Origin: a virus
Strand: one strand, 5' to 3'
Virus record (IMG/VR): IMGVR_UViG_3300028925_007440
Span: 1-36,479 of that record
DNA length: 36,479 nucleotides
Part shown: positions 6,011-35,093 of the stretch, piece after piece
Layout of the letters: every line of letters begins with the position of its first letter
Position numbering within the stretch: the first letter of the stretch is position 1
Translations under genes and position numbers: made by a program
The notes under the pieces: model-generated
What the model was told of the DNA's origin: nothing
Seen by the model: the letters and a program-made list of their open reading frames with translations, nothing else
The model's database searches: none

Positions 6011-6310
6011 TTGATACAAGAGATAATTGACAAACACTCTTTAAATTATGTTGATTGGATTAGAAAAAAAAGTTGTTGCATTACTGGTTACGAACATTCT
6101 GACCCACACCATTTGGATGCAATAGGAATGGGACAAAATCGAAACCGACCAAGCTACAAACATTTTACTTGCGTTCCGTTGTGCAGAGAAAAACATAGTG
6201 AGTTGCACCAGATTGGACAAAAAGCGTTTGAACGAAGATACAATTGTAATCTTTGGGAAGTAGCTTTCTATAACTATCGCAATTATTGTTTGACTATAGA
6301 CAATAGTTAA
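6011..6310 (+). CDS. DUF968-like / HNH-type phage recombination nuclease
   Basis: The 99-residue protein contains CCITGYEHSDPHH, then VPLCREKHSELHQIG and FERRYN. The pattern C-x-x-(T/C)-G...DPHH...VPLCR-x-H...ELH is that of the DUF968/HNH-like proteins found in the recombination or replication regions of many phages. Asp-Pro-His-His and the C-terminal Cys/His are the probable metal site. TTG at 6011 immediately follows the previous stop; no ATG fits. The terS promoter lies within its last codons. Confidence 0.68.
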   Translation: MIQEIIDKHSLNYVDWIRKKSCCITGYEHSDPHHLDAIGMGQNRNRPSYKHFTCVPLCREKHSELHQIGQKAFERRYNCNLWEVAFYNYRNYCLTIDNS

Positions 6311-6317
6311 TTATCAT
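6290..6317 (+). promoter_or_regulatory. Promoter for terminase, TTGACT-N16-TATCAT
   Basis: TTGACT (6290-6295) and TATCAT (6312-6317) with 16 bases between. The -10 ends 6 bases before the terS ATG at 6324, where transcription should start, and no SD lies between, suggesting a leaderless message. Confidence 0.6.
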
Positions 6318-6323
6318 TATTAC

Positions 6324-6710
6324 ATGGCAGGAAAAAGAACCTCTAAGCTCCAATTTATAAGTGCTATACAAAAACACAAGGGTATGGTGGTAGATGTCTG
6401 TAAAGAGCTACAAATATCTCCACAGGCTTTCTACAAAAGAATTAGAACCAACCCAGAGCTTAAAGAAGAGTTTGAACAATCAAGAGACACAATGATTGAC
6501 TTTTGTGAAAGCAAACTAAAACAACTAATTGAGGAAGGTCATTTCCCTAGCATACAATTTTATCTTCAATGTATCGGTAAAAATCGTGGTTGGGTAACCA
6601 AACAAGAACACCATACAACAACAGAAACAAAAAATTATGTTGTGGCAATACCTCAAGAATCTATGATTGAGGAAGAAGATATTGAAGAAATCGAAACAAC
6701 CTTTAACTAA
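6324..6710 (+). CDS. terS: Terminase small subunit
   Basis: 128 residues. The N-terminus is a helix-turn-helix (FISAIQKHKGMVVDVCKELQISPQAFYKRIRTNPELKEEF) like those of phage small terminases that read the packaging site, followed by a helix (SRDTMIDFCESKLKQLIEEGHFPSIQFYLQCIGKNRGW) typical of this family's oligomerisation segment. It directly precedes the large subunit. The start ATG has no SD and sits 6 bases after a good -10 box. The ring it forms would bind phage DNA and feed it to TerL. Confidence 0.82.
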   Translation: MAGKRTSKLQFISAIQKHKGMVVDVCKELQISPQAFYKRIRTNPELKEEFEQSRDTMIDFCESKLKQLIEEGHFPSIQFYLQCIGKNRGWVTKQEHHTTTETKNYVVAIPQESMIEEEDIEEIETTFN

Positions 6711-8052
6711 TGATGTAATTTGGCAACCCCATCCAAGACAATCAGAATTTTTATCTACAACTGTAGATGAGTGTTTGTTTGGTGGAGCAAATGGCGGGGG
6801 CAAGTCTGACGCTATTATGGTTTTACCTTTAAGATGGATTTATCATGCTGAGTTCCGTGCTGTTATCTTTCGTAGAAACACAAAATCACTTAGAAGAATC
6901 ATTGACCGAACAATGCAAATTTATAAAAAAGTAGAGCCACAAGTTCATTGGAGTGAACAAAAGCTAACATACACTTTTCCATCAGGAGCAAAAATATATC
7001 TTTTTCACATGGAGCATGAAAACAATAAATATGATTGGGAAGGTATTCAACTTAACTTAGTTTGCTTTGATGAAATTACTTCTTTTACTGAAGAACAATA
7101 TATGTATTTGTTTTCTAGGATTCGCTCTACTTGTCCAGAGCTACCTAAATACATGAGAGCAACAGGCACTCCAAGTGGGGACAATATTGGTTGGGTTAAA
7201 AAACATTTTATTGATGTTTGTAAACCAAACAAAATCTATAGAGATGGAAGAACAAAACTAACTCGACAATATATACCAGCAACAGTAGACGACAATCCCT
7301 CATTAAAAAATACCGACCCTAACTATGAAAACAGACTAAGAGCCGTTGGAGACGAAAAAACTTATCGCAGACTTAGGTTTGGGGATTGGACAATAGTAGA
7401 AGGGAGTGCTTTTGAAGAACTAGATGAGTCAGTTCACAAAATAAAAGATTTTGAATTACGAAATGATGACATAGTTATTAGAAGTATGGACTGGGGGTTT
7501 GCAAAGCCTTTTGCAGTTTTGTGGGCAGTACAAAGAGAAGAAGCAATAATAGTTTTTAAAGAATTTTATGGGGCTACAGGCAGAAAATTAGACGAGGGCT
7601 TAAGGATGTCTGCTGAAGATGTAGCAAAACAAATTGTTGATTTAGAAAAACCATTTCCTTGTGGAGTTGCACTAAGTTATTGCGACCCTGCTTGTTGGAG
7701 TAAAATAAATCAAGTTGAAAGTATTGCGGATATATTTATGAACAATAGTGTGTTCTTTTTACGAGCAAAAAATGACAGAATTATGGGTAAACAACAAATA
7801 CATTTAAGATTAAAAATAAATGAACACAGAGAAGCGAAGTTGTATATTCATGAAAGTTGTCATTACCTTTGGCAAGAGTTACAAAACATACAACTCGACC
7901 CAAGACGTTCAGGCGAAGATGTTAAAACACAAAAGTGCGACCACGCTTATGACGCTTTAAGGTACGGCTTAATGGGTAGCCCAGTTGGTAGCGATGGCAA
8001 TAGTGATGTTTACTTGGGTGGCACTAGAGAAACATCTCAACAAGAATTTTAA
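6682..8052 (+). CDS. terL: Terminase large subunit
   Basis: About 456 residues. ATPase motifs: HPRQSEF adenine-binding region, Walker A GGANGGGKSD, Walker B LVCFDEIT and a coupling region at RATGTPSG. Nuclease motifs: SMDWGFAKPFAVLW (first Asp), SYCDPACW and CDHAYDALRYG near the end. This is the complete packaging motor ATPase and headful/site nuclease. TTG at 6682 is chosen because GAGGAAG lies in place as SD; an in-frame TTG at 6667 is the alternative. It overlaps terS. It is separated from the portal by 7 kb of accessory genes, which is unusual. Confidence 0.93.
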   Translation: MKKSKQPLTNDVIWQPHPRQSEFLSTTVDECLFGGANGGGKSDAIMVLPLRWIYHAEFRAVIFRRNTKSLRRIIDRTMQIYKKVEPQVHWSEQKLTYTFPSGAKIYLFHMEHENNKYDWEGIQLNLVCFDEITSFTEEQYMYLFSRIRSTCPELPKYMRATGTPSGDNIGWVKKHFIDVCKPNKIYRDGRTKLTRQYIPATVDDNPSLKNTDPNYENRLRAVGDEKTYRRLRFGDWTIVEGSAFEELDESVHKIKDFELRNDDIVIRSMDWGFAKPFAVLWAVQREEAIIVFKEFYGATGRKLDEGLRMSAEDVAKQIVDLEKPFPCGVALSYCDPACWSKINQVESIADIFMNNSVFFLRAKNDRIMGKQQIHLRLKINEHREAKLYIHESCHYLWQELQNIQLDPRRSGEDVKTQKCDHAYDALRYGLMGSPVGSDGNSDVYLGGTRETSQQEF

Positions 8053-8063
8053 GCAATAGTAGT

Positions 8064-8091
8064 TTGACAATAGGTATTAGTCGTGTATCAT
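8064..8091 (+). promoter_or_regulatory. Promoter, TTGACA-N16-TATCAT
   Basis: TTGACA (8064-8069), 16-base spacer, TATCAT (8086-8091) preceded by GTG. Its sequence from TTGACAATAG onward closely resembles the early promoter at 3521. The next ATG is 10 bases after the -10, and no SD is present. Confidence 0.65.
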
Positions 8092-8100
8092 ATACTAATT

Positions 8101-8430
8101 ATGAGAAACAATATTATATCAAAGAAAAAAAAAGCAATAGAGGATTTTAAGAAAAAAACGCTCCAGTACACAGAGTTAGCTAAAGCCTTGATTGAAACAA
8201 TAGAAGGTGCAGACTTTGAAGACATACTGCTACCAGCAATACAGGAAACGGCAGTTCGTTTTGATAGCCTAAAAGGCGAAGAAGAAGAAGCCAAATTAAT
8301 AAACAGCATTAGTGCTGACTTTATACTTATAGGACTGCTTACTAAATGTTTTTCTTATTACAACACACGAGACAAAAGAGAAAATATATTGAAAGAATTT
8401 AAAGAATTAGAAGACAGACTATTGAATTAA
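8101..8430 (+). CDS. Hypothetical helical protein
   Basis: 109 residues from ATG 8101 (starts MRNNIISKKKKAIEDFKKK); an in-frame GTG at 8083 lies inside the promoter and is rejected. The protein is charged and predicted mostly helical. No family recognised. It lacks an SD and follows the -10 box by 9 bases, suggesting leaderless translation. A structured RNA begins 9 bases after its stop. Confidence 0.6.
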   Translation: MRNNIISKKKKAIEDFKKKTLQYTELAKALIETIEGADFEDILLPAIQETAVRFDSLKGEEEEAKLINSISADFILIGLLTKCFSYYNTRDKRENILKEFKELEDRLLN

Positions 8431-8439
8431 ACACGATAT

Positions 8440-8508
8440 GACCCCTGAAGGAGAGACACTCCTTGACCAAGAAAACGTCTCACTCATAATGCCTTTGGGG
8501 GTCTCCTT
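8440..8508 (+). ncRNA. Nested hairpin RNA, terminator or switch candidate
   Basis: Outer stem: GACCCCTGAAGG (8440-8451) pairs along all 12 positions with CCTTTGGGGGTC (8492-8503), using two G-U pairs. Inside it GAGAC (8453-8457) pairs with GTCTC (8477-8481), and CTT-GACC-AAG (8462-8471) closes the tip. A second GTCTCC at 8501-8506 could compete for the GGAGAGAC strand, giving an alternative fold. No classical U-tract follows. It could end the upstream transcript or be a small structured RNA. Confidence 0.5.
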
Positions 8509-8522
8509 TCCAAACAACTTAT

Positions 8523-8550
8523 TTGACATCTACTTTACTTTGTGTATACT
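8523..8550 (+). promoter_or_regulatory. Promoter, TTGACA-N16-TATACT
   Basis: TTGACA (8523-8528), 16 bases, TATACT (8545-8550) preceded by TGTG. It is one of the strongest matches in the window and drives the accessory operon from 8605. Confidence 0.7.
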
Positions 8551-8604
8551 GTTCTATATATTATGGTTAATATATTTTTAAACCATAAAAAAAAGGAGAG
8601 CAAT

Positions 8605-8862
8605 ATGAGCCACAGAATTAATGACGAATGGTTAGAAACATTTTATGAAAATCTTGAAGCAAGATGTTTTGAGCTTAATGGCAAAAGGCAAGATGGAAAA
8701 TATCAGTCAAGCAACTTGGTAGACTTTCTTGAAAGCCACGAACAAATTGCTGTATCAGATTTGATGTGCGATGAACTTACACCACAACAAGCGGTTACAG
8801 AAACAATATCCAAATTTGAATCATGGATAGACGAAGAACAAAATGCAGGGGAGATAATATGA
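8605..8862 (+). CDS. Hypothetical accessory protein
   Basis: 85 residues (starts MSHRINDEWLETFYENLEAR). The ATG at 8605 is chosen over a longer frame because AAAGGAGAG (8592-8600) precedes it and the longer frame would run into the promoter. An acidic helical protein of no known family. The stop overlaps the next start (ATGA). Confidence 0.6.
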   Translation: MSHRINDEWLETFYENLEARCFELNGKRQDGKYQSSNLVDFLESHEQIAVSDLMCDELTPQQAVTETISKFESWIDEEQNAGEII

Positions 8863-9242
8863 AAGAGAATATGAAAGTTTCTGTGTTTGGAACTAAGGGA
8901 GACAATATGATAACAACAGATAAAATGTTGAACGAAATGTTAGTCAGCAAAGTTGACTACAAAGATTTAAAGAAAGAAGATGTTTTAAGAACTACGCAAC
9001 TTGGCGAACCAGTTACATCAATCTTGATGGAATCTGTAAAACAAGGACGAGGATTGAAACCAACAATATTGGTTAACACCAAAGGAAGCGAAGTTGGTAT
9101 GTTTGACGAAATCGGTTCTGTCTTTGCAGATGATGTATCTCAGGTTAAGAAAGATGGGGAGTGGCTTGAAGTAATTAACAAACCGCAGACAGGCAAAAGA
9201 GTTCAAGATAAGTTTTTTGCAGGAGAGGAAATAGATGAGTAG
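8859..9242 (+). CDS. Hypothetical accessory protein
   Basis: 127 residues from ATG 8859, with CAGGGGAGA as SD and an ATGA overlap with the preceding gene. The C-terminal half is strand-rich and acidic. Bases 9176-9198, encoding NKPQTGK, recur identically at 10599-10621 in another gene. Not recognised. Confidence 0.58.
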   Translation: MKENMKVSVFGTKGDNMITTDKMLNEMLVSKVDYKDLKKEDVLRTTQLGEPVTSILMESVKQGRGLKPTILVNTKGSEVGMFDEIGSVFADDVSQVKKDGEWLEVINKPQTGKRVQDKFFAGEEIDE

Positions 9243-9495
9243 AAAATATACGAAACATGGATTAGATTTTATGAACTGCGATGAATCAGAATTTCAAAAA
9301 AGGTTAGATTTTTTAGAAGACTTTTTAACTGAGCTTGGCAGATTAGTCGATGGAGACTCAGGAGCTTTCCAACGAACTATGCAGGGTTGGACTCCAACTG
9401 ATGTCTACGAAAAAGGAACAAAAGAAAAAAAACTACCTGAGCAATTAGCTGAGGAACTTTATAAAGAGAGAGGTGTAACAAATGCAAGACATTAA
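9235..9495 (+). CDS. Hypothetical accessory protein
   Basis: An 86-residue protein (starts MSRKYTKHGLDFMNCDES), predicted helical, not recognised. GGAGAGG precedes the ATG; it overlaps both neighbours, so it belongs to the 8.6-10.3 kb operon. Confidence 0.6.
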   Translation: MSRKYTKHGLDFMNCDESEFQKRLDFLEDFLTELGRLVDGDSGAFQRTMQGWTPTDVYEKGTKEKKLPEQLAEELYKERGVTNARH

Positions 9496-9865
9496 CAAAG
9501 ACGACAAAAAGATAGAAGCTTTTTTTATTGACAAACGAAAAGAGTATTCTAAAAAATACTACGAAAAAAACAAAGAGCTTATCCTTGCTAAGAACAAAGA
9601 GTGGAGAGAAGCAAATCCACAACGAGAGAAATCTAGGAAAGCTGATTGGTATGTTCAAAACAAAAACCATGTTGCCGAAACACAAAAAAACTACATGGAT
9701 AAAGTTGGCAATGAATTGAGAAGAGAAAAATATAACAATTTAAAAACTACAGACCCAACAACATATCAAAAAAAACTTGCTTATCAAAAAGAATGGAGAG
9801 ACGCAAACAAACAAAAAGTGGTGGAGTATAGAAACAAGCACCAGAGAAAGGTAACCAATGAATAA
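9482..9865 (+). CDS. Lys/Glu-rich repeat protein
   Basis: 127 residues with several copies of a YY/YxxKNK..W(R/Y)xxN-type module, for example KKYYEKNKELILAKNKEWRE and YQKEWRDANKQKVVEYRNK. Such modules occur upstream of HNH domains in some phage and algal-virus proteins, but no HNH is present here. The modules may bind nucleic acid. GAGAGG lies upstream of the ATG. Confidence 0.58.
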   Translation: MQDINKDDKKIEAFFIDKRKEYSKKYYEKNKELILAKNKEWREANPQREKSRKADWYVQNKNHVAETQKNYMDKVGNELRREKYNNLKTTDPTTYQKKLAYQKEWRDANKQKVVEYRNKHQRKVTNE

Positions 9866-10322
9866 AAAGATTGTACTTTTAGAAAACAATGTTCCGTTAG
9901 ATTTCCGATATCGTGTTACACAAAACATTGTAGACCAAATGAGGTTTCTAAGAATGTTAGAATATAGTTTGCAAAAAATAGTTGACTTCATTTATGACAC
10001 TAGAGGTCTAAAGATATGTACAACAACTGTTAGCTATTGGACAAACGAAACTCGTAGGAAAAAACAATTGGTTAACAATCTTAAACAAAAAAAGAAACTT
10101 CGTGCCTTAGAAACTGCTGTTGAAAAGAAAGCTAGAATAAAAAAACAATCTAAGTACAGACTATTGAATTGGAAAAGAGACCCTAGACTAAGACTGAAGC
10201 ACGACATACAATCAGCTAAGGATGAAAAACGAAGTGCAAGAAGAACTGTACAAGGGTTAGATATAAAAAAAGCAAACGCACTAAAGCTCTTGTTACATAC
10301 ACCCAATCGAAAGGTTGTGTAA
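9858..10322 (+). CDS. Putative HTH DNA-binding protein
   Basis: 154 residues. The segment QMRFLRMLEYSLQKIVDF followed by KICTTTVSYWTNETRRKKQ looks like a homeodomain/resolvase-type helix-turn-helix with recognition helix around TTTVSYWT. The rest is very basic (KKKLRALETAVEKKARIKK). This suggests a DNA-binding regulator. It ends the operon that starts at 8605; a new promoter follows 9 bases later. Confidence 0.6.
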   Translation: MNKKIVLLENNVPLDFRYRVTQNIVDQMRFLRMLEYSLQKIVDFIYDTRGLKICTTTVSYWTNETRRKKQLVNNLKQKKKLRALETAVEKKARIKKQSKYRLLNWKRDPRLRLKHDIQSAKDEKRSARRTVQGLDIKKANALKLLLHTPNRKVV

Positions 10323-10330
10323 ATAGTCTA

Positions 10331-10358: not shown

Positions 10359-10364
10359 TACCTA

Positions 10365-11702: not shown

Positions 11703-11717
11703 ACTAAGGGAGAGATT

Positions 11718-12282: not shown

Positions 12283-12288
12283 ATCAAG

Positions 12289-14875: not shown

Positions 14876-15205
14876 CTATTTAAGATTCTTAGAAAGAAGA
14901 ACGGCAATCAAATCAGGATTAAGAACAATGAACTTAAGCAATAGGTCAGCCTTGAAGTCAATGAGGTTTTCGCCTTTGTACGAATCTGATAGCATATCGA
15001 AGGCGTGTATGAGTTCATGAAGGAAGATAGACTCTGGTCTATTGATATCATCAAGAGCTACATAGATTTCTCTTTTCTCTAAATCACAGTAACCGCATAA
15101 TGGTTCATTGAATTTAATTTTTAGTTCTGGGAGTGTTGTTTCTATTAAGTCCCATTCTTTATAGGGCGTACCAAAGTATATCTTTTCTTGGTTGAAGTAA
15201 GACAT
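14876..15205 (-). CDS. HExxH zinc-metallopeptidase-like protein
   Basis: 109 residues with FLHELIHAFD (HExxH), followed about 17 residues later by NLIDFKADLLLKF, where an acidic residue could be the third ligand. This is the layout of small ImmA/IrrE-type or minigluzincin-like metallopeptidases. GYCDLEKREIYVALD forms the preceding strand region. In phages such proteins may cleave repressors or host factors. No SD; a TAAACT box lies only 5 bases before the ATG, so the message may be leaderless. Its promoter overlaps that of the portal gene. Confidence 0.62.
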   Translation of the reverse strand: MSYFNQEKIYFGTPYKEWDLIETTLPELKIKFNEPLCGYCDLEKREIYVALDDINRPESIFLHELIHAFDMLSDSYKGENLIDFKADLLLKFIVLNPDLIAVLLSKNLK

Positions 15206-15210
15206 ATCAT

Positions 15211-15241
15211 AGTTTACATGATTGAGAAATTAGAGTAAAAT
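15211..15241. promoter_or_regulatory. Overlapping opposed promoters
   Basis: Plus strand: TTTACA (15213-15218)-N17-TAAAAT (15236-15241), 8 bases before the portal ATG at 15250. Minus strand: TTTACT (15239-15234)-N17-TAAACT (15216-15211), 5 bases before the ATG at 15205. Each promoter's -10 overlaps the other's -35, so the two cannot be occupied at once. Confidence 0.5.
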
Positions 15242-15249
15242 ACTTGGAA

Positions 15250-17289
15250 ATGGGATATCTTGATAACTTTACTAAATGGAAGATTTTTGAACCTTCTGAA
15301 GCAAAACAAAAAGAAACACCGAGAATGGGAGAGATGGCAGTTAATGAATCTTTGCTATATGGACAAAATACATTCTCTAAATATAACCCTGATACTTTAG
15401 TTGGTAGAAAGGGTTTATTGGCATATGACAAAATGCGAATAGACGATACTGTTAAGTCTTCTCTAATTTTAAAAAAATATGCTGTGTTAGCACCTAACTT
15501 TAGAATAGTACCTGCGAGTGATGAACAACAAGACATAGATGTAGCGAATTATTTAGAATACTGCTTTGACCATATGGAAGGGTCTATCTACGATTCTATA
15601 TTACAGATACTTACAGCTCTTGACTTTGGATATAGTATAACAGAAATAAATTTTGAAATATTTGACGAAGGTGACTTTAAAGGCATGGTAGGTTTGAAGT
15701 CTCTTAAAACTAAATACCCACACTATTATCAATTTGAAGTAGATGCTTATTCTAATATTAAAAAAAATGGTTTGATATACAATGTAGGCGGGTCTGAAAA
15801 GAAGCTGCCTTTAGATAAGTTTGTTATTTACTCATATCAAAAAGAATTTGGTAATCCATACGGCAACTCCGATTTAAGATGTGCATATCGTGGTTACTGG
15901 TCTAAAGACGTATTAATAAAATTTTGGAATATCTATCTTGAAAGGTTTGCAATGCCAACAGTAGTTGGACAATATGCTTCTAATGATTCGGGTAGTGTAA
16001 ATAATCTTAGAAACATTTTAGATAACCTATCTGCTAAAACATCTATTTCTCATAGGATGGGTGAATTTGATTTAAGTTTATTAGAATCTTCAAGAAACAG
16101 TACACAAGAATATCAAGCCGCTTTAAACTTCTACAACAAAATGATTGCCAGAAGTATTCTTATTCCTGATAGATTGTTTGCAGAGGGCGAGACTGGTGCA
16201 TACGCACAATCTAAAATTCACTTTGATGTATTCTTATGGGTTGTAGAAAAACTAAGACAAGACATTGAAGAGATTGTTATGAAGGAACAATTAGTTAGAA
16301 GACTGATTAATTACAATTTTAAAAATGTAAAAAAACTTCCGAGCTTTAAATTCAATCCTCTTACTGATGAACAGAAACTAGCTCTTAATGGTATGTTTAT
16401 TGATGCTGTCTCTAAAGGGGTCATCACTAAAAACGATGAAGATGAAAACTATATTAGAGAGTCATTAAACTTCCCTCTTGCAAAAAAACCTGTGGAAAAA
16501 GAAGACAAAGAAACTCCTGACCCTATTGAAGAGGAAGTAGAAACTGAGGAAGTAGAAGTTGAAGAGAAAGAAGAAGAGGTAACAACAGAACAAAAAGACA
16601 ATGCTATTTCTGATATAGACTTTACACCGACTGATAGTATGAAAGCTGAAGCGGATAGAGGATTAGCTTGGAGAAAAGAATTTAAAAGAGGTGGCACTCT
16701 TGTTGGAGTAGCCAGAGCTAATCAACTTTCTAATAAAGAAAACCTAAGTCCAAGCACAGTTAAGCGTATGTTCTCTTTCTTTAGTAGACATGAAGTAGAT
16801 AAACAAGGAAAGGGTTTTAACAAAGGTAGTGATGGCTATCCAAGTGCAGGTAGAATTGCTTGGGCTCTCTGGGGTGGAGACGCAGGATTCTCTTGGTCAA
16901 GAAAGAAAAGGAATCAATTAGAAAGAGAAACAGAGAACTCACAATTGTTTTCTATAGTTGAGGAACAAAAGAACCTTCTCAAAGAGTTCATTACTAAAAA
17001 ATTTGCAAAAGAAGAACTTACTATCAAGTTTATTAAATCTGGAATTGACCTAAAAAAGAAACAAGCAATTAAAGATGAAGTAAAAAAAGATTCAGACAAT
17101 ATTGATGATGGACAAGCAGCACTTGTTGATATAAAAATAGAAAATTACTTTGACCAACATTTAGCAAACGTCTACATACATCTTATAGATTCTGTAACAC
17201 AAAATAATGAAATAGACAATATTCTCAATGGTATTGATGAAATATACGAAAGTGACTATATTGAAAATTTAGAATTATTAAGAGTGTGA
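15250..17289 (+). CDS. Portal protein (Mu gp29/DUF935-like) with C-terminal extension
   Basis: 679 residues from ATG 15250 (TTG at 15244 is the alternative). Residues 1-410 match the Mu gp29/DUF935 portal pattern (SSLILKKYAVLAPNFRIVPAS, ALDFGYSITEINFEI, FGNPYGNSDLRCAYRGYWSKD, YLERFAMPTVVGQY, RSILIPDRLFAEGETGAYAQS). An acidic linker (about 425-448) leads to a recurring phage domain (about 461-550: RGLAWRKEF, LSPSTVKRMFSFFSRHEVDK, PSAGRIAWALWGGDAG) of unknown function, then a helical tail. The portal forms the dodecameric packaging vertex. No SD; start lies 8 bases after a -10 box. Confidence 0.87.
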   Translation: MGYLDNFTKWKIFEPSEAKQKETPRMGEMAVNESLLYGQNTFSKYNPDTLVGRKGLLAYDKMRIDDTVKSSLILKKYAVLAPNFRIVPASDEQQDIDVANYLEYCFDHMEGSIYDSILQILTALDFGYSITEINFEIFDEGDFKGMVGLKSLKTKYPHYYQFEVDAYSNIKKNGLIYNVGGSEKKLPLDKFVIYSYQKEFGNPYGNSDLRCAYRGYWSKDVLIKFWNIYLERFAMPTVVGQYASNDSGSVNNLRNILDNLSAKTSISHRMGEFDLSLLESSRNSTQEYQAALNFYNKMIARSILIPDRLFAEGETGAYAQSKIHFDVFLWVVEKLRQDIEEIVMKEQLVRRLINYNFKNVKKLPSFKFNPLTDEQKLALNGMFIDAVSKGVITKNDEDENYIRESLNFPLAKKPVEKEDKETPDPIEEEVETEEVEVEEKEEEVTTEQKDNAISDIDFTPTDSMKAEADRGLAWRKEFKRGGTLVGVARANQLSNKENLSPSTVKRMFSFFSRHEVDKQGKGFNKGSDGYPSAGRIAWALWGGDAGFSWSRKKRNQLERETENSQLFSIVEEQKNLLKEFITKKFAKEELTIKFIKSGIDLKKKQAIKDEVKKDSDNIDDGQAALVDIKIENYFDQHLANVYIHLIDSVTQNNEIDNILNGIDEIYESDYIENLELLRV

Positions 17290-21208: not shown

Positions 21209-24100
21209 TTACACATACTCTCCTTCAAATGGTTCAGACTTAGACTTTGTTACTATTTTTAACCAGTCTAAATAATCTTGGTTGCTTTCAAACCTAGCAA
21301 CAACTTCTTTGCCTTGTGATTTAGTTTTATCTGGTGCTATATCAATAAAAGTTCTATATTCAAGTCCAAGACCTAGAGTATGTAAAGCTTCGGAGTAAAA
21401 ACCAAGACCTTCATCTAAGTAAAAGATTTTTGGGCTTCCTTCTTCTGCGTGTAAGAATTCATCTCTAAATTCTTTAACAGCTTTTCGTAAATATGTTTGT
21501 GCTTGTGGTGTTACGCCACCTTTTTGTTCCATTTCATATCTAGCTAAATGTACCCAATCTCTAATCATTAAAAACTTACCTAAGTTTCTAGTAGGATTAA
21601 TTTCTCTATCTTTTAACATTAAGTCTATATTACGTTGAAACCTAGCCTTTCTGCCAGTTTCCGTAAAATAACCATCATGGGCAATATCAACATCGCCAAG
21701 AATAGAACTAGCCCCAACGCCATCATTAATTTTAAACTCTGGATGTTCATGAACGTACCCGTAAAATTTAATCCCTATATGGTTTCTAAACAATCTGATT
21801 GGTAAATCTATCTTAAACGAGCCTACTGGGTCAGTTGTAAAGTGGTGTTGTTTTATAGAGTACCCGTTAAATATATTAGGGCGAAGGTATTTATAAAGAT
21901 TTGGTACATTAGTAATCTCTTCATCGTCATCTATCCAAAAAATCCAATCTCCTTTTGCATCTTTAATAGATTTGTTTCTACAAGCATCAAAGCCAATCTT
22001 GGTAGCATTTTCTGAAGTTATAATCTTTGCTCCAAATTGTTTACATATTTCTACGCCATTATCACTTGAGCCATTATCAACAACAATAATCTCATCAGCA
22101 AAAGGTTGTACAGATTTTAAACATCTGCGAATCATATCTTCTCCATCTTTGAGAATCATACAAGCTGAAACAGTTTGTCTAGGAGATTGCAAGTCAAGAA
22201 ATCTTTTAAATTTTATAGGTTGTGTTTTAGCAACAGATTTCTTCCAACTAAAAATCCACCAACCTAAATTATCTTGCACTCTAGTATTCGTTCCCGCAGA
22301 ACACATTTTCATATTAAAGTCTTTTTTAGTGTTTAACATTTCTCTAAGCTGTTCTCTTTCAAAGTTCCACAAATGTGCTTTTCTTTCGTCTTCCCATAAA
22401 CCAAAAGGAACAGTAAAAATAATGTACCCATCATTTTTAACTTGCGATTCTAGCTCATCAATAAACTCTTCTGGACTAGGCTGATGCTCTAATACTTCGC
22501 CACAATAAGCAATATCAACTTTTGGTATATCTAAGTTGGCAGGAGATGATTCTTTTATAATGTCAATTAATTCAGGTCGCTTACAATTCTTATCTATAAA
22601 CTTTTTAGTCATTTCTATTTCTGCATCACTAATATTTACAGAGTGAACTTTTGCTCCAAAATATGCTGTAAACAATACTGACTCATTACCTATACCTGCA
22701 CCATAATCTAAAATACTTATGTTTTCAGGTTTGTTTTTTAAAGTAGCAATATGCTTACCAATTTCTTCTAAAACAATTTTAGTTCTTGAATATTCTTGTA
22801 ATGGAAACTCTTTATCCTCAGCTTCCATCTCTGCTTTTAATTCTTTTCCTAGTTGAACATAAAACTCATTATACTTTTCTTTGTCTTCAAGATATGGATA
22901 TTCTTTGTTAATTTTATTAATCCATTCTTTATTTTTAGTTTCTTCTGACAAATGTTTCAAAGCCATAATGTTTTCGGTTCTATAAAGATGTTTAGATAAT
23001 GTTTCTTTGTTTGCGGTTCTTTCTTTAAACATTTCATAAATATGTTTTTCCCATTCTTTAGCAACGTGTTTCCATTGATTGTTGTCAACGTATGATAAAC
23101 CAGCTTTTTGAGCCTTTTCATATTTTGCGTCATCTTCAATAAGCTCAAATACTGCATTAACAAAGGCTTCTTCATATTCAGGTGTTTTAGCGTCTCCATC
23201 AATAATAGAAGCATAGTCTTCTCTACAAGTTTCAGGTAGTGCTCCAATGTTAGAAGTAACCATTGGTAGTCCGCACATTTGTGCTTCCATAACAGTTATG
23301 CAAGATGTTTCTTTAAAATTAGTAGGATAAACGTAGACACCTGCACCTTTATACAATCCATATAAATCATTTTTAGTTAAAGCACCAACATGACCAATTG
23401 AATAGCCTTGTTCTTTGTAAACTTTAATTTGATTGTTTAGTTCATTATAGAAGTTAGCCATGTCAGGGTGTGTATTGTCATAACCTGCAATAACAATTTC
23501 TATTTCTTTATCTTTAGCCCATAACTTTGGAGCAATACTATAAAGCAAATTATCAAGACCTCGTTCTGGTCTGTTGGTGTAAACAAGTCTTTTTCTATTT
23601 CGTTTTATGTCGCCTTCAACTTCTTTCTTAGTTATCCCATTTCTAGTTTTCCAAAATAACTTTTTGTCAGTTTGATATATTTCTGCTTGTTGATTTATAT
23701 GAAAGTCTGATAAAGCCCATACTTCATCAATGTTCCATAGAGAACCAGTAAAGTCACTTCTTCTACTTTTTACGGCTACATCATGATTCCACAAAATGTT
23801 AATCTTGGATTTATTATCTCTTTGATATAGTTCTGGTATGCGTTGATTAATAGTTACATCGCAAGAACAATAGTCAAGATATCCTTGTAACTTATTATGA
23901 TGAATCCAATGAACCCCATTATGAATTCCTTCTTTTGTAGTATTACAGAACAAACTAACGTCATGACCAAGTGCCGCTAACTCTTGAGCCATGCAAATTC
24001 CTGCAGTTTCGCTGCCACCCAAACTTTTAGTTGCAAGTGTATCATGGTTCATTTCCATTCCCATAACAATAAGACTTATTTCTAGTTTGTGGTTTTTCAT
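21209..24100 (-). CDS. Trifunctional GT4 glycosyltransferase - methyltransferase - GT2 glycosyltransferase
   Basis: 963 residues with three domains. About 1-350 is a GT4-type glycosyltransferase (GGSETAG near 28; ETSCITVMEAQMCGLPMVTS near 270). About 440-600 is a class I SAM methyltransferase (ILDYGAGIGNES; EVLEHQPSPEEF). About 635-860 is a GT2 glycosyltransferase (TVSACMILKDGEDMIRRCL; EIIVVDNGSSDNG; WIFWIDDDEE with the metal-binding acids). It lies on the opposite strand within the virion genes, ends 2 bases from the upstream stop and has its own SD (TAGGAG), so it behaves as an inserted moron. It may modify host surface glycans or virion proteins. Confidence 0.88.
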   Translation of the reverse strand: MKNHKLEISLIVMGMEMNHDTLATKSLGGSETAGICMAQELAALGHDVSLFCNTTKEGIHNGVHWIHHNKLQGYLDYCSCDVTINQRIPELYQRDNKSKINILWNHDVAVKSRRSDFTGSLWNIDEVWALSDFHINQQAEIYQTDKKLFWKTRNGITKKEVEGDIKRNRKRLVYTNRPERGLDNLLYSIAPKLWAKDKEIEIVIAGYDNTHPDMANFYNELNNQIKVYKEQGYSIGHVGALTKNDLYGLYKGAGVYVYPTNFKETSCITVMEAQMCGLPMVTSNIGALPETCREDYASIIDGDAKTPEYEEAFVNAVFELIEDDAKYEKAQKAGLSYVDNNQWKHVAKEWEKHIYEMFKERTANKETLSKHLYRTENIMALKHLSEETKNKEWINKINKEYPYLEDKEKYNEFYVQLGKELKAEMEAEDKEFPLQEYSRTKIVLEEIGKHIATLKNKPENISILDYGAGIGNESVLFTAYFGAKVHSVNISDAEIEMTKKFIDKNCKRPELIDIIKESSPANLDIPKVDIAYCGEVLEHQPSPEEFIDELESQVKNDGYIIFTVPFGLWEDERKAHLWNFEREQLREMLNTKKDFNMKMCSAGTNTRVQDNLGWWIFSWKKSVAKTQPIKFKRFLDLQSPRQTVSACMILKDGEDMIRRCLKSVQPFADEIIVVDNGSSDNGVEICKQFGAKIITSENATKIGFDACRNKSIKDAKGDWIFWIDDDEEITNVPNLYKYLRPNIFNGYSIKQHHFTTDPVGSFKIDLPIRLFRNHIGIKFYGYVHEHPEFKINDGVGASSILGDVDIAHDGYFTETGRKARFQRNIDLMLKDREINPTRNLGKFLMIRDWVHLARYEMEQKGGVTPQAQTYLRKAVKEFRDEFLHAEEGSPKIFYLDEGLGFYSEALHTLGLGLEYRTFIDIAPDKTKSQGKEVVARFESNQDYLDWLKIVTKSKSEPFEGEYV

Positions 24101-24158: not shown

Positions 24159-24569
24159 ATGGAAAGTTGTGAATGGTATACACCACCCTATATTTTTGAT
24201 AAGTACAACAAAATTTACAATTTTGATTTAGATGTTTGTGCAACAGCACTTAGCACTAAATGTAAAAACTATTTTGATATTAAACAAAATGGATTAGAAC
24301 AAAATTGGATTGGTACTTGTTGGATGAATCCACCTTATAAAAATGCTAATGCTTGGGTTAGGAAAGCACATACGGAATCTATTAAAAATAAAAACATTAT
24401 AGTTTGTTTATTGCCTGTTCGAACTTCTACTGATTATTGGCAAGATATTGTTTTGCCTTATGCAAAGATTGAATATTTAAGAGGTCGCATTGCTTTTGGT
24501 AGTCCAAATGGAATCATTGGAACAGCTAGACATGATAGTGCTATTGCGGTCTTTGACTGCTCTGATTAA
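24159..24569 (+). CDS. dam: DNA N-6-adenine methyltransferase (Dam-like)
   Basis: 136 residues matching the phage Dam family (PF05869-type): EWYTPPYIFDKYNKIYNFDLDVCAT at the start, WMNPPYKNANAWVRKA with the catalytic NPPY, IIVCLLPVRTSTDYWQDIV, and RGRIAFGSPNG. It lacks a separate FxGxG motif, as members of this short family do. Likely methylates phage DNA to evade host restriction. No SD precedes the ATG. The next operon's promoter lies in its final codons. Confidence 0.85.
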   Translation: MESCEWYTPPYIFDKYNKIYNFDLDVCATALSTKCKNYFDIKQNGLEQNWIGTCWMNPPYKNANAWVRKAHTESIKNKNIIVCLLPVRTSTDYWQDIVLPYAKIEYLRGRIAFGSPNGIIGTARHDSAIAVFDCSD

Positions 24570-24580
24570 AGTGATATAAT
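24553..24580 (+). promoter_or_regulatory. Promoter, TTGACT-N16-TATAAT
   Basis: TTGACT (24553-24558), 16 bases, perfect TATAAT (24575-24580). The next ATG is at 24587, 6 bases after the -10, where transcription would begin; no SD. It would start the connector/tail operon with a leaderless message. Confidence 0.65.
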
Positions 24581-24586
24581 AATCCT

Positions 24587-25087
24587 ATGGCAGATTATAC
24601 AAGCGTTGCTGATGTATATGCGTTATATCCTCGTATAGGCAGTATGACTATTATTACATCGTCAAATATTTCTTTCTATATTGACCAAGCTGAAAATGAA
24701 ATGAATGGCTATTTGGCTAACAATTACAGTCTTCCGTTTGCAACCTCTGTTCCAATAGTTACAACAATAGCTACCGAGTTCTCGGTTGTTAAGATACTAG
24801 AAAGATTCTTCACACAAGAAGTAGGAAGTAAAAACGAGTGGGTAGAAGAAAGATATAAGCACGTTTACGAAACTCTTACTCAGATTAGCTCTGGAGATAT
24901 TTCTTTAATAACTTCTTCTTATGAAGTTTTAGCTTACTTTTCAAATGGTGGCATTTATAGTAACAATCAAAACAATACTCCAGTATTTAATAGATTAAAT
25001 ACAACATTACAGCAATTTGATGGAGACCAGCTTAGGGATGAGTTTGATACAACTCGTAACACTCCAAGAGAACCTAGCTTAGAATAA
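24587..25087 (+). CDS. Head-tail connector (Mu gp36/DUF1320-like)
   Basis: 166 residues. The start YTSVADVYALYPRIGS, then ISFYIDQAENEMNGYLANNYSLPF and VVKILERFF, matches the helical DUF1320/gp6-like adaptor pattern. Such proteins join the portal to the tail. Start lies just after a promoter with no SD. It overlaps the next gene by 1 base. Confidence 0.75.
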   Translation: MADYTSVADVYALYPRIGSMTIITSSNISFYIDQAENEMNGYLANNYSLPFATSVPIVTTIATEFSVVKILERFFTQEVGSKNEWVEERYKHVYETLTQISSGDISLITSSYEVLAYFSNGGIYSNNQNNTPVFNRLNTTLQQFDGDQLRDEFDTTRNTPREPSLE

Positions 25088-30429: not shown

Positions 30430-30438
30430 AGGTAAAAT
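30410..30438 (+). promoter_or_regulatory. Promoter, TTGTAA-N17-TAAAAT
   Basis: TTGTAA (30410-30415), 17-base spacer, TAAAAT (30433-30438), ending 6 bases before the ATG at 30445. AGAGG lies within the -10 region at a poor SD distance. It fits the -10-next-to-start pattern of other genes here. Confidence 0.45.
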
Positions 30439-30444
30439 AAATCT

Positions 30445-30807
30445 ATGAATAACTTACCAACAGGCACATATAAAATATCAAATGCAAACGCAACAGACGA
30501 AGTAGCAATAGCTTCAACATGGGGTGGAAAGAACTTTTATTGCACTAATATTGCAATTCAAGCTTATAACACAGCAGCACATAGTGGAACTCATGCTGTA
30601 AAACTTTATAATGCAGCAGGTAGCCCTGCGGCTGAAGCAACTATTGCAGAGATACATTTGAATGGAGCAGCACTAGCACACGCAGAAATGAATTTGAATC
30701 CAAACGTGTTATTGCCACAAAGTTATAGTATTAGAATAGTATCAGCAAATGCAAAGACAGACATATATTGTTCTGTAATTGGATATACATTTAACTTAAC
30801 AGATTAG
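30445..30807 (+). CDS. Small beta-rich tail protein
   Basis: 120 residues (starts MNNLPTGTYKISNANATDEV), Ala/Asn/Ser-rich with regular strands (HSGTHAVKLYNAAG, SYSIRIVSANAKTDIYCSVIGY). No family name is certain. It resembles in style the proteins at 30816 and 33228, suggesting small tail-tip or fibre-associated parts. Confidence 0.55.
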   Translation: MNNLPTGTYKISNANATDEVAIASTWGGKNFYCTNIAIQAYNTAAHSGTHAVKLYNAAGSPAAEATIAEIHLNGAALAHAEMNLNPNVLLPQSYSIRIVSANAKTDIYCSVIGYTFNLTD

Positions 30808-30815
30808 GAGCATAG

Positions 30816-31229
30816 ATGGGACATATTTATGACAGTTTCAGAAACTACATAGCAGTAGGAAGTGCAAATTTAGCTTCTGTAACAATAGGTGCTTTACTTG
30901 TCAATACGACTGCAAATGTAAGCTCTGGCTATGTATTCTCAGCAGCACATACAACAAGAGCAAATGTACCAGCAGTAGCACAAGTCGCTGTCTACTCTCT
31001 TTCTGGTGTAGCAGTAAGCTCTGGAAGAGTTAATGCAAACGATTTAGCTATTCCGTCAGTAAGTGGAGCTCCTATAAATGCCGTAATTTATTTTGTGGCT
31101 ACAGCAAACTCAAGTACAAGTCCATTAATAGCAATCCAATCAAGTGGTAGTGGGTTTCCTTTAAGTCCTGATGGTGGAACTATAAATGTTACGTTCCCAG
31201 CTTCAGACCCATTTGTCATGAAGGTGTAA
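30816..31229 (+). CDS. Small beta-rich tail protein
   Basis: 137 residues (starts MGHIYDSFRNYIAVGSANLAS), strongly strand-predicted and Ala/Ser/Val-rich, with GGTINVTFPASDPFVMKV at the end. TAGGAG is the SD. A tail-tip or fibre accessory role is inferred from position between minor tail and fibre genes. Confidence 0.55.
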   Translation: MGHIYDSFRNYIAVGSANLASVTIGALLVNTTANVSSGYVFSAAHTTRANVPAVAQVAVYSLSGVAVSSGRVNANDLAIPSVSGAPINAVIYFVATANSSTSPLIAIQSSGSGFPLSPDGGTINVTFPASDPFVMKV

Positions 31230-31230
31230 T

Positions 31231-32568
31231 TTGGCTATTCAAGGTGGAAGAATCTCAACTGATGACATTCTTGATTCAGCAGTTACTACTAGTAAAATAG
31301 CTGACGATGCTGTAGAATCTGAAAAGATAGGCAATAATGAAGTCTTAACAGCAGCAATTCTTGATGCTAATGTAACAAACGGAAAACTAGGTACAGACAT
31401 CTCTGCAGCAAAACTAGTAGCAGGTACATTGCCAATGGCTCGGTTATCAGGAACTTTACCTGCATTAAATGGCTCAGCTTTAACAGCTTTAACAGCAGGA
31501 AACTTATCAACAGGAACAGTAGCAACAGCAAGACTAGGAACTGGGACAGCAAACTCAACTACATTTTTAAGAGGAGACAGTACCTATGCAGCTCCTTCTA
31601 CATCAGCAGTTCCGACCAATAGAAATTTAATGATTAATGGTGCAATGGAAGTTTCACAAAAGGGTGGGGGAAGTCATACAACTGCAGGTCAAACATATTG
31701 GGTAGATAGATTTTATACATACACTGCTGCTGCTGGTAGGACAATATCACAAAGCTCTAATGCACCAGATGGATTTAGAAAAAGTATAAAGCTACAAAGA
31801 GATAGTGGAAGTTCGGCAGTAAATCCACAATATCTGTCGCAACCTGCTGAAAGTGCTAGTAGTGTAGGATTTGCAGGAGAAACAATAACTTTAAGTTTTT
31901 GGGCAAGGGCAGGAGCAAATTTTTCTCCAACAAGTAATTATCTTAATGTTGCAGTTTATTCTGGAACTGGTACTGACCAATCTTTGATGGGTGGTTTAAC
32001 TGGTTCTGTTGCTGTAATTGGAACTACTAACCAAACAATTACAACTAGCTGGGTAAAATATACATTTACAAGTGGAAGCGTTGTACCTACAAATTCAAAT
32101 CAATTAGTTTTCCAAATATTAACTACTCCAGTTGGAACTGCAGGAACAAACGATTGGTATGAGATTACTGGTGTACAAATAGAAATAGGAAGTTCGGCTA
32201 CAGAGTTTGTACATGAAGAATATGGTACAACTCTGGCAAAGTGTCAAAGATTTTTTTTGAATTATGTAGATGGCAATACTAAAAGCATTGGAGTTGGTGG
32301 ATTTTACAATACAACAGTTGTAGCTTGTCATATACAACCACCAGTTACATTCAGAGATACACCATCTTTTGCTTTTGGTTCTGGAACTGGTTGGTATTAT
32401 ACTGATACAGATGGTGGTTCAACTACAGGTAACTGGACTGCTGGTTCTTGGCTACAAATAAATTCAGTAGGATTTTATGGTACATTTGGCACTAAAGGTG
32501 GTGGGGATGTTTGTTTTTTAAGAACTAATAATGCAGGAGCATATATCTGGTTTGATGCAGAGTTATAG
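31231..32568 (+). CDS. Tail fibre protein
   Basis: 445 residues. The N-terminal 120 (STDDILDSAVTTSKIADDAV, LDANVTNGKLGTDISAAKLVAG, LSTGTVATARLGTGTANST) are the low-complexity repeats of phage fibre shafts. From NLMINGAMEVSQKGGGSH onward comes a lectin-like beta-sandwich (TITLSFWARAGANFS, WYEITGVQIEIGSSATEFVHEEYGTTLAKCQRFF) frequent in environmental phage fibres. Probably binds host surface glycans. TTG start with AAGGTG upstream. Confidence 0.82.
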   Translation: MAIQGGRISTDDILDSAVTTSKIADDAVESEKIGNNEVLTAAILDANVTNGKLGTDISAAKLVAGTLPMARLSGTLPALNGSALTALTAGNLSTGTVATARLGTGTANSTTFLRGDSTYAAPSTSAVPTNRNLMINGAMEVSQKGGGSHTTAGQTYWVDRFYTYTAAAGRTISQSSNAPDGFRKSIKLQRDSGSSAVNPQYLSQPAESASSVGFAGETITLSFWARAGANFSPTSNYLNVAVYSGTGTDQSLMGGLTGSVAVIGTTNQTITTSWVKYTFTSGSVVPTNSNQLVFQILTTPVGTAGTNDWYEITGVQIEIGSSATEFVHEEYGTTLAKCQRFFLNYVDGNTKSIGVGGFYNTTVVACHIQPPVTFRDTPSFAFGSGTGWYYTDTDGGSTTGNWTAGSWLQINSVGFYGTFGTKGGGDVCFLRTNNAGAYIWFDAEL

Positions 32569-32576
32569 GAGAGACA

Positions 32577-32765
32577 ATGTTTGAAGGTTGCACAATAAAA
32601 TATGGATACGATTTGGGTGGAATGAAAAATCAAATCATAATTGAATATCCAGAAAAAGAAAGTGGTGGCAGAGATGTTGTAACTTGTCCTATTGATAGTC
32701 CTAACAATAGATATTACAAAATGGTTATGCAATGGGTAGCAGAAGGTGGTGTTATAAGTGAGTGA
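32577..32765 (+). CDS. Small hypothetical fibre-adjacent protein
   Basis: 62 residues ending YYKMVMQWVAEGGVISE; short phage proteins ending in a W-V-A-E-G pattern often lie beside fibre genes. TAGGAGAG is the SD. It overlaps the next gene by 8 bases. Confidence 0.58.
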   Translation: MFEGCTIKYGYDLGGMKNQIIIEYPEKESGGRDVVTCPIDSPNNRYYKMVMQWVAEGGVISE

Positions 32766-32976
32766 TATAATTATTTGGAAGCAAGAAAGTGGTATAATAG
32801 CAGTAACACATCCTGCATTAAATTGTGGTCTAACAATAGATGCAATAGCAAAAAAAGATTTACCTACAGGAACTAAGTATAAAATAATAGCAGCAGAAGA
32901 ACTACCAGAATGGGATGAGTTCAGAGATGCTTGGACTTGTGATGATGACTACCTAGACTCAGGAGTAGCAGATTAA
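32758..32976 (+). CDS. Fibre-assembly-like protein, N-terminal half
   Basis: 72 residues: IIIWKQESGIIAVTHPALNC, LTIDAIAKKDLPTGTKYKII, FRDAWTCDDD. This pattern is the N-terminal half of proteins often annotated near fibres (a conserved prologue ending in FRDAW). GTG start with AAGGTGG upstream; the stop overlaps the next ATG. Confidence 0.6.
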   Translation: MSDIIIWKQESGIIAVTHPALNCGLTIDAIAKKDLPTGTKYKIIAAEELPEWDEFRDAWTCDDDYLDSGVAD

Positions 32977-33227
32977 TGATTACACATGATATGAATAAAG
33001 CCAGAGAGATTTGGAGAAACAAAATTAGACTAGCTAGGAAACCTATTTTAGAACAATTAGATATAGAATATATGAGACTAAGCGAACAGTCTGCCGATAC
33101 ATCGGTCATTGTTGCAACAAAAGAAAAGCTAAGAGGTTTTCCAAACAAACCTGAAATAGACGTGGCTACTACATTAGAACAATTAAGAGAAATATGGGAT
33201 AATAGTTTATTGGGAGATAAAGTTTAA
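32976..33227 (+). CDS. Fibre-assembly-like protein, C-terminal half
   Basis: 83 residues: DMNKAREIWRNKIRLARKPILEQLDIEYMRLSEQ, then IVATKEKLRGFP. It matches the helical second half of the same fibre-adjacent family, usually one polypeptide. Here the two halves are separate genes joined by a TAATG overlap, so they are likely made in equal amounts and act together. Confidence 0.6.
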   Translation: MITHDMNKAREIWRNKIRLARKPILEQLDIEYMRLSEQSADTSVIVATKEKLRGFPNKPEIDVATTLEQLREIWDNSLLGDKV

Positions 33228-33551
33228 ATGGGACAAACAGTAGTCAAAACAGGAGCAACAGGGCTAAGTGGAAGCACCTTAATTTATTCAAGTGCAGCAG
33301 CAGGTGTATATTCTGCTCTTATTGATTTAACACCTATGCACAGTACCGCTAAGATAGCAATCAATATTGGCAATACTACTATAGTTGCTAGTGGGACTAA
33401 AGTAGTAACGTCAGATTCTTTTGAAGGAGCACAAACAATTGACCCAATGTTTTTTCAACCACCTATGCACACAAATAAAGGTTATTCAATAACTATTGTT
33501 TTAAGCTCTGGAACTGCACCTACACTTCCATTTGAAATTACAACATTCTAA
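33228..33551 (+). CDS. Small beta-rich tail protein
   Basis: 107 residues, Thr/Ser/Gly-rich (starts MGQTVVKTGATGLSGSTLIY), with alternating strands and no identified family. GGGAGAT is the SD. Resembles the proteins at 30445 and 30816 in composition. Confidence 0.55.
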   Translation: MGQTVVKTGATGLSGSTLIYSSAAAGVYSALIDLTPMHSTAKIAINIGNTTIVASGTKVVTSDSFEGAQTIDPMFFQPPMHTNKGYSITIVLSSGTAPTLPFEITTF

Positions 33552-33565
33552 AAATAGGATATAAT
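33537..33565 (+). promoter_or_regulatory. Promoter, ATTACA-N17-TATAAT
   Basis: ATTACA (33537-33542), spacer 17, TATAAT (33560-33565), 7 bases before the ATG at 33573. There is no SD. The -35 is weaker than others. Confidence 0.45.
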
Positions 33566-33572
33566 AACCTCT

Positions 33573-35093
33573 ATGGCACTCGGCAGTTATAGATTTTCAC
33601 ATCAAAGACAAACTTTTTATTACTTACTAGGTAATAAAATCTATATTAATGGCGTTGATTTCCAATCTGAAATAGGTAGACCAACTCTGGCTACATCAAT
33701 TGAAGCTTTATCCGTAAACGGGCTAGATTTTGAATCACTTATTGGCGATATAAACATAAGAACAAATATAATAATTAATGGTTTAGATTTTGTATCAACA
33801 CTAGGTAATCTAAATGTTACAGAAAGTTTCAGCATGGCTTATATTGGTCATGATGCTAGTTCTTTATTTATAAGCAAAAACCAAAGTACAAACCCATCAT
33901 CTGTTGTTAAAAGATTTACTTATAATAACTCTGATTTTTCTGGCAGGGTTACTAAGTATGGAAACATATCAAGAGAGTATTCTAAAGTAGTAGGAAAGGC
34001 TTTTTCAATAGACATGGAAAACGCTAGTGGTTTAATGAATGACTTAAATCAAAACAGAGCTAATTTAAGACAGACTGGCGATGTTATGTATGGATATCAA
34101 GCTACTGCTTCATCAGCAGACGTTATTTCAATTGGTGCAGGAAAACTAACTAATGTAAGTTATGACAACAAGAATGGGGCAAAATTAACTTTTAAAACAA
34201 GGCTTGATACTTTAGCACAAGACAAAGTATCAATTGATACCTCATCAAGACAAGGTGCTAATTTTACAACATCTAATCACAACCCTGCTGATTTATTGTT
34301 TCACATAATGACGGCTAGTAGTTATGGTGGTGGCTATAGTGCAATAACTTCTAAAACTAATCCTGTAATTAATTACGATTCATGGAAAGCTTGGAAAGAC
34401 CAACTTACAAGTGAGTCTATAACAGTAAGGGGCTTCATCCCTCATGGTACTAGCTATCAAAAAACAATAAAAGCTCTTGCTGAAATAACAGATTCAGCAA
34501 TTTATGTTGAAGCAGACAATAGGCTTTTCTTTGCAAGATACTTAACAGGCTCAAATAGTTTTACTGCAGTTGCTTCTGAAAATGACATAATAAGTATGAG
34601 TGCTACTGTTAATGCCTATGATATGTGTAATCAATATTCAGTTCCAATGTCATATTCTGTAACAAGCAACAGGCTTAGTGATTCTCCGTCTGGAACAGTA
34701 ACAATTGTAAACACTTCTTCAATAAATAGTTTTGGAACAATCTCTAAAGAACCAGTTAGTAAATTGTTTTGGTACACAAGTAGTGCCAACGCTGTTGCCT
34801 TAGCAAATAGAATTACTGTTAGAAGACGAGAACCTGAAGTAGCTGTTAAAATAACAACACCAATAAAATATTTAAATCAACAATTAACTGATATTATGAG
34901 AATCAACGTATCAGAGCTTGGACTTGTTGACCAACCATACACAATTATTGGAGAAACAATAAATTTAGAAAAAGATACAATTATGTTTGATTTATCAGTA
35001 GGACATGGCATAGCCATTGCCAATATAACAGTTTTTGAACTAAATGATGATGTGTTAGGTAGGTTGAACAATACAATAGGTGTTTTGGCTTAA
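33573..35093 (+). CDS. Large tail protein, possible tail hub
   Basis: 506 residues. The N-terminus (about 20-90) has three copies of NG(V/L)DF-x-S-x-(I/L)G spaced about 30 residues. The remainder includes KAFSIDMENASGLMNDLNQNRANL, NVSYDNKNGAKLTFKTRLD, RGFIPHGTSYQKTIKALAEITDS, AIYVEADNRLFFARY and MRINVSELGLVDQPYTIIGETINLEKDTI. These suggest a hub-like, sub-virion beta structure, the size and place of a central tail protein. No SD. Not firmly assigned. Confidence 0.62.
   Translation: MALGSYRFSHQRQTFYYLLGNKIYINGVDFQSEIGRPTLATSIEALSVNGLDFESLIGDINIRTNIIINGLDFVSTLGNLNVTESFSMAYIGHDASSLFISKNQSTNPSSVVKRFTYNNSDFSGRVTKYGNISREYSKVVGKAFSIDMENASGLMNDLNQNRANLRQTGDVMYGYQATASSADVISIGAGKLTNVSYDNKNGAKLTFKTRLDTLAQDKVSIDTSSRQGANFTTSNHNPADLLFHIMTASSYGGGYSAITSKTNPVINYDSWKAWKDQLTSESITVRGFIPHGTSYQKTIKALAEITDSAIYVEADNRLFFARYLTGSNSFTAVASENDIISMSATVNAYDMCNQYSVPMSYSVTSNRLSDSPSGTVTIVNTSSINSFGTISKEPVSKLFWYTSSANAVALANRITVRRREPEVAVKITTPIKYLNQQLTDIMRINVSELGLVDQPYTIIGETINLEKDTIMFDLSVGHGIAIANITVFELNDDVLGRLNNTIGVLA

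What the first reader, a model, noticed from the sequence alone, without database searches (positions are those of the whole stretch)
6290..33575. Several genes appear to use leaderless transcripts with the -10 box 5-9 bases before the start
At terS (6324), the gene at 8101, the metallopeptidase-like gene (15205, minus), portal (15250), the connector (24587) and the genes at 30445 and 33573, a -10 box ends 5-9 bases before the start codon, so transcription should begin at or beside it. None has a well-placed SD, while many other genes here have strong ones. The -35 elements at 16-17 bp make chance less likely. Leaderless mRNAs are known in bacteria but unusual as a recurring class in a phage with otherwise SD-rich genes, and they mark structural and packaging starts.
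Basis: partly seen in the sequence, partly recalled or inferred. Interest (0 to 1): 0.7.

Follow-up and report, generated by a model that had tools for sequence, protein, structure and literature searches.

The report
Phage genes starting at mRNA's end
In this uncultured marine phage and its relatives, several genes at the head of transcription units carry their promoter so close to the start codon that the messenger RNA should begin at, or within about two bases of, the start codon, a known but uncommon way to start protein synthesis that is unusually consistent here.

Summary
Six of 17 weak-SD genes carry a -10 of at least 5 bits there; shuffles give 0.76 (0/1000 reach 6), and 0/47 SD genes do. 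The decisive evidence is comparative. Diverged orthologues keep the box at the same distance: gp36 12/13, portal 10/11 (8-9 nt), terS 7/14 strong boxes (6 nt). Capsid and decoration-protein genes show 0/23 each and all have SDs. Across 435 kb of non-redundant relatives, full promoters 6 nt before an ATG number 22 against 1.3 per distance; AT-rich phages outside the family give none. The base before those ATGs is a pyrimidine in 31/33 cases, against 40% at SD starts, as expected if transcription begins at the A. The same scan's top hit in lambda is cI, a known leaderless gene. Qualifications: 8101 is not leaderless in its nearest relative, 30445 also has an SD-like AGAGGT, and most structural genes are SD-led. 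Leaderless genes are a known kind. No 5' ends were mapped; the host is unknown.

The parts
6290..6326 (+). terS promoter: -35 TTGACT 6290-6295, 16-bp spacer, -10 TATCAT 6312-6317, 6 nt, ATG 6324; predicted +1 at the A of ATG
   Evidence: -35/-10/6-nt layout kept in L002, L003, L005, L174, L176, L179, L186, L187
8064..8103 (+). promoter of gene 8101: TTGACA 8064-8069, TATCAT 8086-8091, 9 nt, ATG; weakest case
   Evidence: orthologue in L002 (43% id) keeps the promoter but has a leader with an AAAGGAGA SD
15203..15239 (-). minus-strand promoter: -35 TTTACT 15239-15234, 17 bp, -10 TAAACT 15216-15211, 5 nt, ATG 15205 (metallopeptidase-like gene)
   Evidence: same layout in L080 and L178
15213..15252 (+). 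portal promoter: -35 TTTACA 15213-15218, 17 bp, -10 TAAAAT 15236-15241, 8 nt, ATG 15250; predicted +1 about 2 nt upstream; interlocked with the minus promoter (each -35 overlaps the opposite -10)
   Evidence: -10 at 8-9 nt in 10/11 distinct sequences
24553..24589 (+). Gp36-like head-tail connector promoter: TTGACT 24553-24558, 16 bp, TATAAT 24575-24580 with TG extension, 6 nt, ATG 24587
   Evidence: -10 at 5-7 nt in 12/13 distinct sequences, orthologues at 48-66% protein identity; PF07030
30410..30447 (+). promoter of tail-region gene 30445: TTGTAA 30410-30415, 17 bp, TAAAAT 30433-30438, 6 nt, ATG; also an SD-like AGAGGT 11 nt before ATG
   Evidence: where this gene is absent (L161, L164, L199) the same kind of promoter sits 5-6 nt before the ATG of the 30816 orthologue
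33537..33575 (+). promoter of gene 33573: ATTACA 33537-33542, 17 bp, TATAAT 33560-33565, 7 nt, ATG
   Evidence: TA box at 6-7 nt also in L165, L162 and, as TAATAT, in L166 (50% id)
35102..35119 (+).
   Evidence: L005 same, L162 TATAAT at 6 nt
3479..3517 (-). repressor-like gene, start better placed at ATG 3481: TTGACA 3517-3512, 16 bp, TAACTT 3495-3490, 8 nt, ATG; candidate only
   Evidence: layout kept in L005 and L004 (TACCTT, 7 nt); fails the 3.5-bit cut-off; phrog_3 transcriptional repressor, weak hit

Best explanation
In this marine phage family several heads of transcription units (terS, portal, Gp36-like connector, one or more tail-region genes, a divergent metallopeptidase-like gene, probably the repressor) are read from host sigma-70-type promoters placed so that the first transcribed base is the A of the start ATG or lies within about 3 nt of it. 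The resulting leaderless mRNAs have no SD and are presumably started by 70S ribosomes (or the host's equivalent) on the 5'-terminal AUG. Genes further down the same units use ordinary strong SDs. Putting +1 on the ATG lets a promoter fit into the end of the upstream gene plus a 13-23 nt gap, so a unit can get its own promoter without room for a leader. Shown here: promoter layout, its conservation, SD absence and position statistics. Inferred: the actual 5' ends, host RNA polymerase use, 70S initiation, and the compactness reason.
For: Window statistics. Orthologue contrast: gp36 12/13 (1.4 expected), portal 10/11 (1.6), terS 7/14 (1.8), 15205 minus 3/3 (0.5) versus 0/23 each for capsid 19250 and 18862, all SD-led. 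Family-wide peak at 6 nt: 22 versus 1.29 per distance (Poisson P about 7e-20, which treats orthologous starts as independent). Pyrimidine before ATG 31/33 versus 89/222 at SD starts, P 1.4e-9 (same caveat). Lambda control returns cI as the top 6-nt hit. AT-rich portal-domain sharers outside the family: 0 at 6 nt in 86 kb. The promoter serves the next ATG when gene 30445 is absent. Upstream gaps of 13-23 nt.
Against: No 5' ends or ribosome data exist. Host unknown, so its capacity for leaderless initiation is untested. Not all starts behave: 8101 (SD in L002), 30445 (AGAGGT); 35117 and 8101 at 9 nt predict a leader of about 3 nt. Half of the terS sequences have weak -10 hexamers. Readthrough from upstream genes could also express these starts. 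Thresholds and the gene set were chosen by hand.
Confidence: 0.86

Rival explanations
1. The boxes are chance matches in AT-rich sequence before start codons.
For: Total promoter-like sites in the window are no more than in shuffles; GC is 34%.
Against: The positional enrichment is absent in shuffles, in SD genes, at other ATGs and in AT-rich phages outside the family; orthologues keep box and spacing.
Confidence: 0.03
2. The promoters are real but the genes are mainly translated from longer read-through mRNAs, by coupling to the upstream gene or by SD-independent 30S binding to an unstructured region; the near-ATG promoter is secondary.
For: Several starts lie 13-23 nt after an upstream same-strand gene; 30445 also has AGAGGT.
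Against: The portal and the minus gene 15205 are divergent, so the portal has no same-strand neighbour close upstream; the 6-nt spacing and the -1 pyrimidine are constrained, which readthrough would not need.
Confidence: 0.08
3. Some start codons are misassigned: transcription starts there, but translation begins downstream at an SD-preceded codon.
For: 8101's relative in L002 starts after an SD.
Against: N-terminal residues align from Met1 or close to it in terS, portal, gp36 and 33573 orthologues.
Confidence: 0.03

Closest known systems
Leaderless ('TA-led') genes of bacteria (Zheng et al. 2011, PMC3160421)
   Same: A -10-like TA box about 10 bp upstream of the start with no SD; in low-GC genomes TAtAAT, sometimes with a TG before it, as in gp36 here.
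   Different: Described for cellular genomes; here in an uncultured marine phage family, beside strongly SD-led genes.
Lambda cI from PRM (named as a leaderless mRNA in PMC9031893)
   Same: Our scan finds cI with -10 6 nt before ATG and 17-bp spacing, the same geometry.
   Different: One regulatory gene in lambda; here packaging, portal, connector and tail genes, probably with the repressor as well.
Lactococcus leader bimodality (PMC10986495)
   Same: Low-GC bacterium whose mRNAs are either leaderless (under 5 nt) or have about 40-nt leaders with a gap between; the window likewise mixes leaderless-type and SD-led starts.
   Different: Host data, not phage; no evidence that this phage infects a related host.
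Thermus phage P23-45 (leaderless status recalled from memory, not checked in a paper)
   Same: Our scan gives 4 -10 boxes at 6 nt versus 0.5 per distance.
   Different: GC 57%, no -35 found at these sites by our scoring, unrelated host.
Bacterial bidirectional promoters (PMC10268837)
   Same: 15205/15250 are overlapping divergent promoters.
   Different: Predicted start sites about 44 bp apart, outside the 7-25 bp definition; overlap is -10 against -35.

Membership tests
Leaderless (TA-led) bacterial genes | -10-like TA box with its end about 6 nt before the start codon, beyond chance | tested here: met
Leaderless (TA-led) bacterial genes | no SD at the start | tested here: met
   0 to -4.0 kcal/mol at 6324, 8101, 15205, 15250, 24587, 33573; exception 30445 (-7.2)
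Leaderless (TA-led) bacterial genes | AUG start with a pyrimidine just before it | tested here: met
   all window cases are ATG (only ATGs were scanned family-wide); 31/33 pyrimidine at 6-nt starts; the portal-type starts at 8 nt mostly have A
Leaderless (TA-led) bacterial genes | mapped 5' end at or within a few nt of the start codon | not testable with these tools
   needs RNA from infected cells
Leaderless (TA-led) bacterial genes | translation by 5'-terminal AUG recognition / 70S | not testable with these tools
   needs toeprinting or kasugamycin tests
Bidirectional promoters (7-25 bp divergent start sites) | divergent start sites 7-25 bp apart with reciprocal -10 overlap | tested here: not met
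   predicted about 44 bp apart; -10/-35 interlock instead

The most novel reading that the evidence does not exclude
The family follows a fixed rule, leaderless for many unit-head genes and SD for downstream genes, kept by selection on the promoter-ATG distance, so that late gene expression depends on a ribosome state (70S or initiation-factor-poor) reached during infection.
Probability: 0.12. Interest if true: 0.75.

Novelty: new member of a known kind. Interest (0 to 1): 0.45.

Why it matters
It gives a phage family in which the promoter-to-ATG distance is measurably constrained and in which single orthologous genes switch between leaderless-type and SD-led starts (25665, 30816, 8101). That makes the cost and use of leaderless initiation in phages testable by comparison. 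It also matters for gene calling: SD-based callers can misplace such starts, as with the 12 extra codons before 3481.

Tried and rejected
Host assignment: the capsid profile against GTDB contigs gave only three 35-40% relatives in unrelated MAGs, and cultured phages are at most 35% identical in TerL and capsid, so the host stays unknown. Counting promoter-like sites over the whole window is uninformative. RNA folding of the first 50 nt of five transcripts is indistinguishable from shuffles. 20421 and 24159 lack SDs but have no conserved box or usable orthologues. 2576 (HNH endonuclease) scored in the window, but 0/15 sequences (window and relatives) have the box under the stricter TA..T rule. 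A literature search for phages with recurrent leaderless late genes found no dedicated study in the held library, which does not show that none exists.

Full report
WHAT THE WINDOW IS. A 36,479-base IMG/VR virus record, GC 34%, with a Terminase_6N TerL, a Mu-type portal (PF06074), a Mu Gp36-like connector, a tail tube and a tape-measure protein. Relatives come from IMG/VR contigs; no cultured phage is close. Relative L005 carries the genes of both window ends in one run, so the window is probably a near-complete circular or permuted map. The host is unknown; 'marine' is my reading of the relatives' metagenome origins and is not tested.

THE OBSERVATION. Because the window is AT-rich, the number of promoter-like sites overall is no higher than in shuffles. 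The question is therefore position only. With a standard -10 matrix, 6 of 17 genes with weak or no SD have a box of at least 5 bits ending 5-9 nt before the start; shuffled upstream regions give 0.76 on average and never 6 in 1000; none of 47 SD genes has one; 2.2% of other ATGs do. Threshold, SD cut-off and gene list were my choices.

CONSERVATION. Upstream regions of orthologues were anchored on the start codon. gp36: twelve of thirteen distinct sequences, orthologues at 48-66% protein identity, read T-A-x-x-x-T then 5-7 nt then ATG, several with TGnTATAAT. Portal: ten of eleven have it at 8-9 nt with a -35 about 17 bp further up. terS: distant relatives (about 40-45% identity) keep TTGACA, 16-17 bp, a -10 and exactly 6 nt; seven of fourteen pass the -10 cut-off. 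Capsid (19250) and decoration-like (18862) genes are the opposite: 0/23 each, SD in all. Some genes switch: 25665 is SD-led here and in several relatives but has the box in L190, L192, L194 and L199; 30816 is SD-led here, but in L161, L164 and L199, where 30445 is missing, a -10 lies 5-6 nt before its ATG.

FAMILY-WIDE POSITION. In 435 kb of non-redundant family sequence, complete promoters (score 9 or more) before in-frame ATGs number 22 at 6 nt against 1.29 per distance elsewhere. Phages sharing only a distant TerL, capsid or a portal domain show no or a weak peak, and the AT-rich portal-domain sharers (86 kb, GC 34%) show none. In lambda the best hit at 6 nt is cI, a known leaderless gene (PMC9031893). 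At 6 nt, 31 of 33 ATGs follow a pyrimidine, against 40% of SD-led ATGs. A -10 ends at -7 in a standard promoter, so 6 nt puts +1 on the A of ATG, and a pyrimidine at -1 before a purine at +1 is the usual initiator; this is a separate sign of the start site, although orthologous starts are not independent of each other.

MECHANISM. Most likely the host's sigma-70 polymerase starts on or beside the ATG and the mRNA is translated from its 5'-terminal AUG. The predicted leader is 0 nt for terS, gp36 and 30445, about 1 nt for 33573, 2 nt for portal, and about 3 nt for 8101 and 35117. Downstream genes use SDs. Short gaps (13-23 nt) suggest that the design saves space; that is inference. The portal and the minus-strand gene 15205 share one 44-bp gap in which each promoter's -35 overlaps the other's -10, conserved in L080 and L178; only one polymerase could occupy it at a time (inference).

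LIMITS AND STATUS. No transcript data. 8101 is the weakest case, 30445 could use AGAGGT, and 3481 minus is a candidate only. Leaderless genes are known in many bacteria (PMC3160421, PMC9031893) and one paper calls phage transcripts often leaderless (PMC5312081), so the kind is known; what is new is a recurrent, distance-conserved use in one uncultured phage family.

Noticed in passing
15203-15252: Divergent promoters of the 15205 minus gene and portal are interlocked: plus -35 overlaps minus -10 and minus -35 overlaps plus -10; conserved in L080 and L178.
   Followed up: partly
3511-3527: Perfect 7+3+7 inverted repeat TTGTCAA-ATA-TTGACAA containing the -35 elements of both the repressor promoter (minus) and the 3587 promoter (plus); kept in L005 as TTGTCAA-GTG-TTGACAA; looks like a repressor operator.
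   Followed up: no
L121:4976, L125:13406, L127:5886, L129:9775, L134:11417: A different phage lineage has a promoter (TTGG/TTGGC-type -35, TATACT or TATAAT -10) 6 nt before the ATG of a roughly 290-aa protein that may be a head-tail connector, in all five contigs: another conserved leaderless-type start.
   Followed up: partly
window 1-200 and 36300-36479: L005 joins the genes of the two window ends, so the contig is probably a near-complete circularly permuted genome.
   Followed up: partly
21209-24100: Minus-strand 963-aa protein fusing a group 1 glycosyltransferase, a methyltransferase and a family 2 glycosyltransferase domain inside the structural region.
   Followed up: no
6667-6690: TerL has no obvious ATG start; TTG 6682 with GAGGAAG upstream inside terS is the best candidate.
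   Followed up: no
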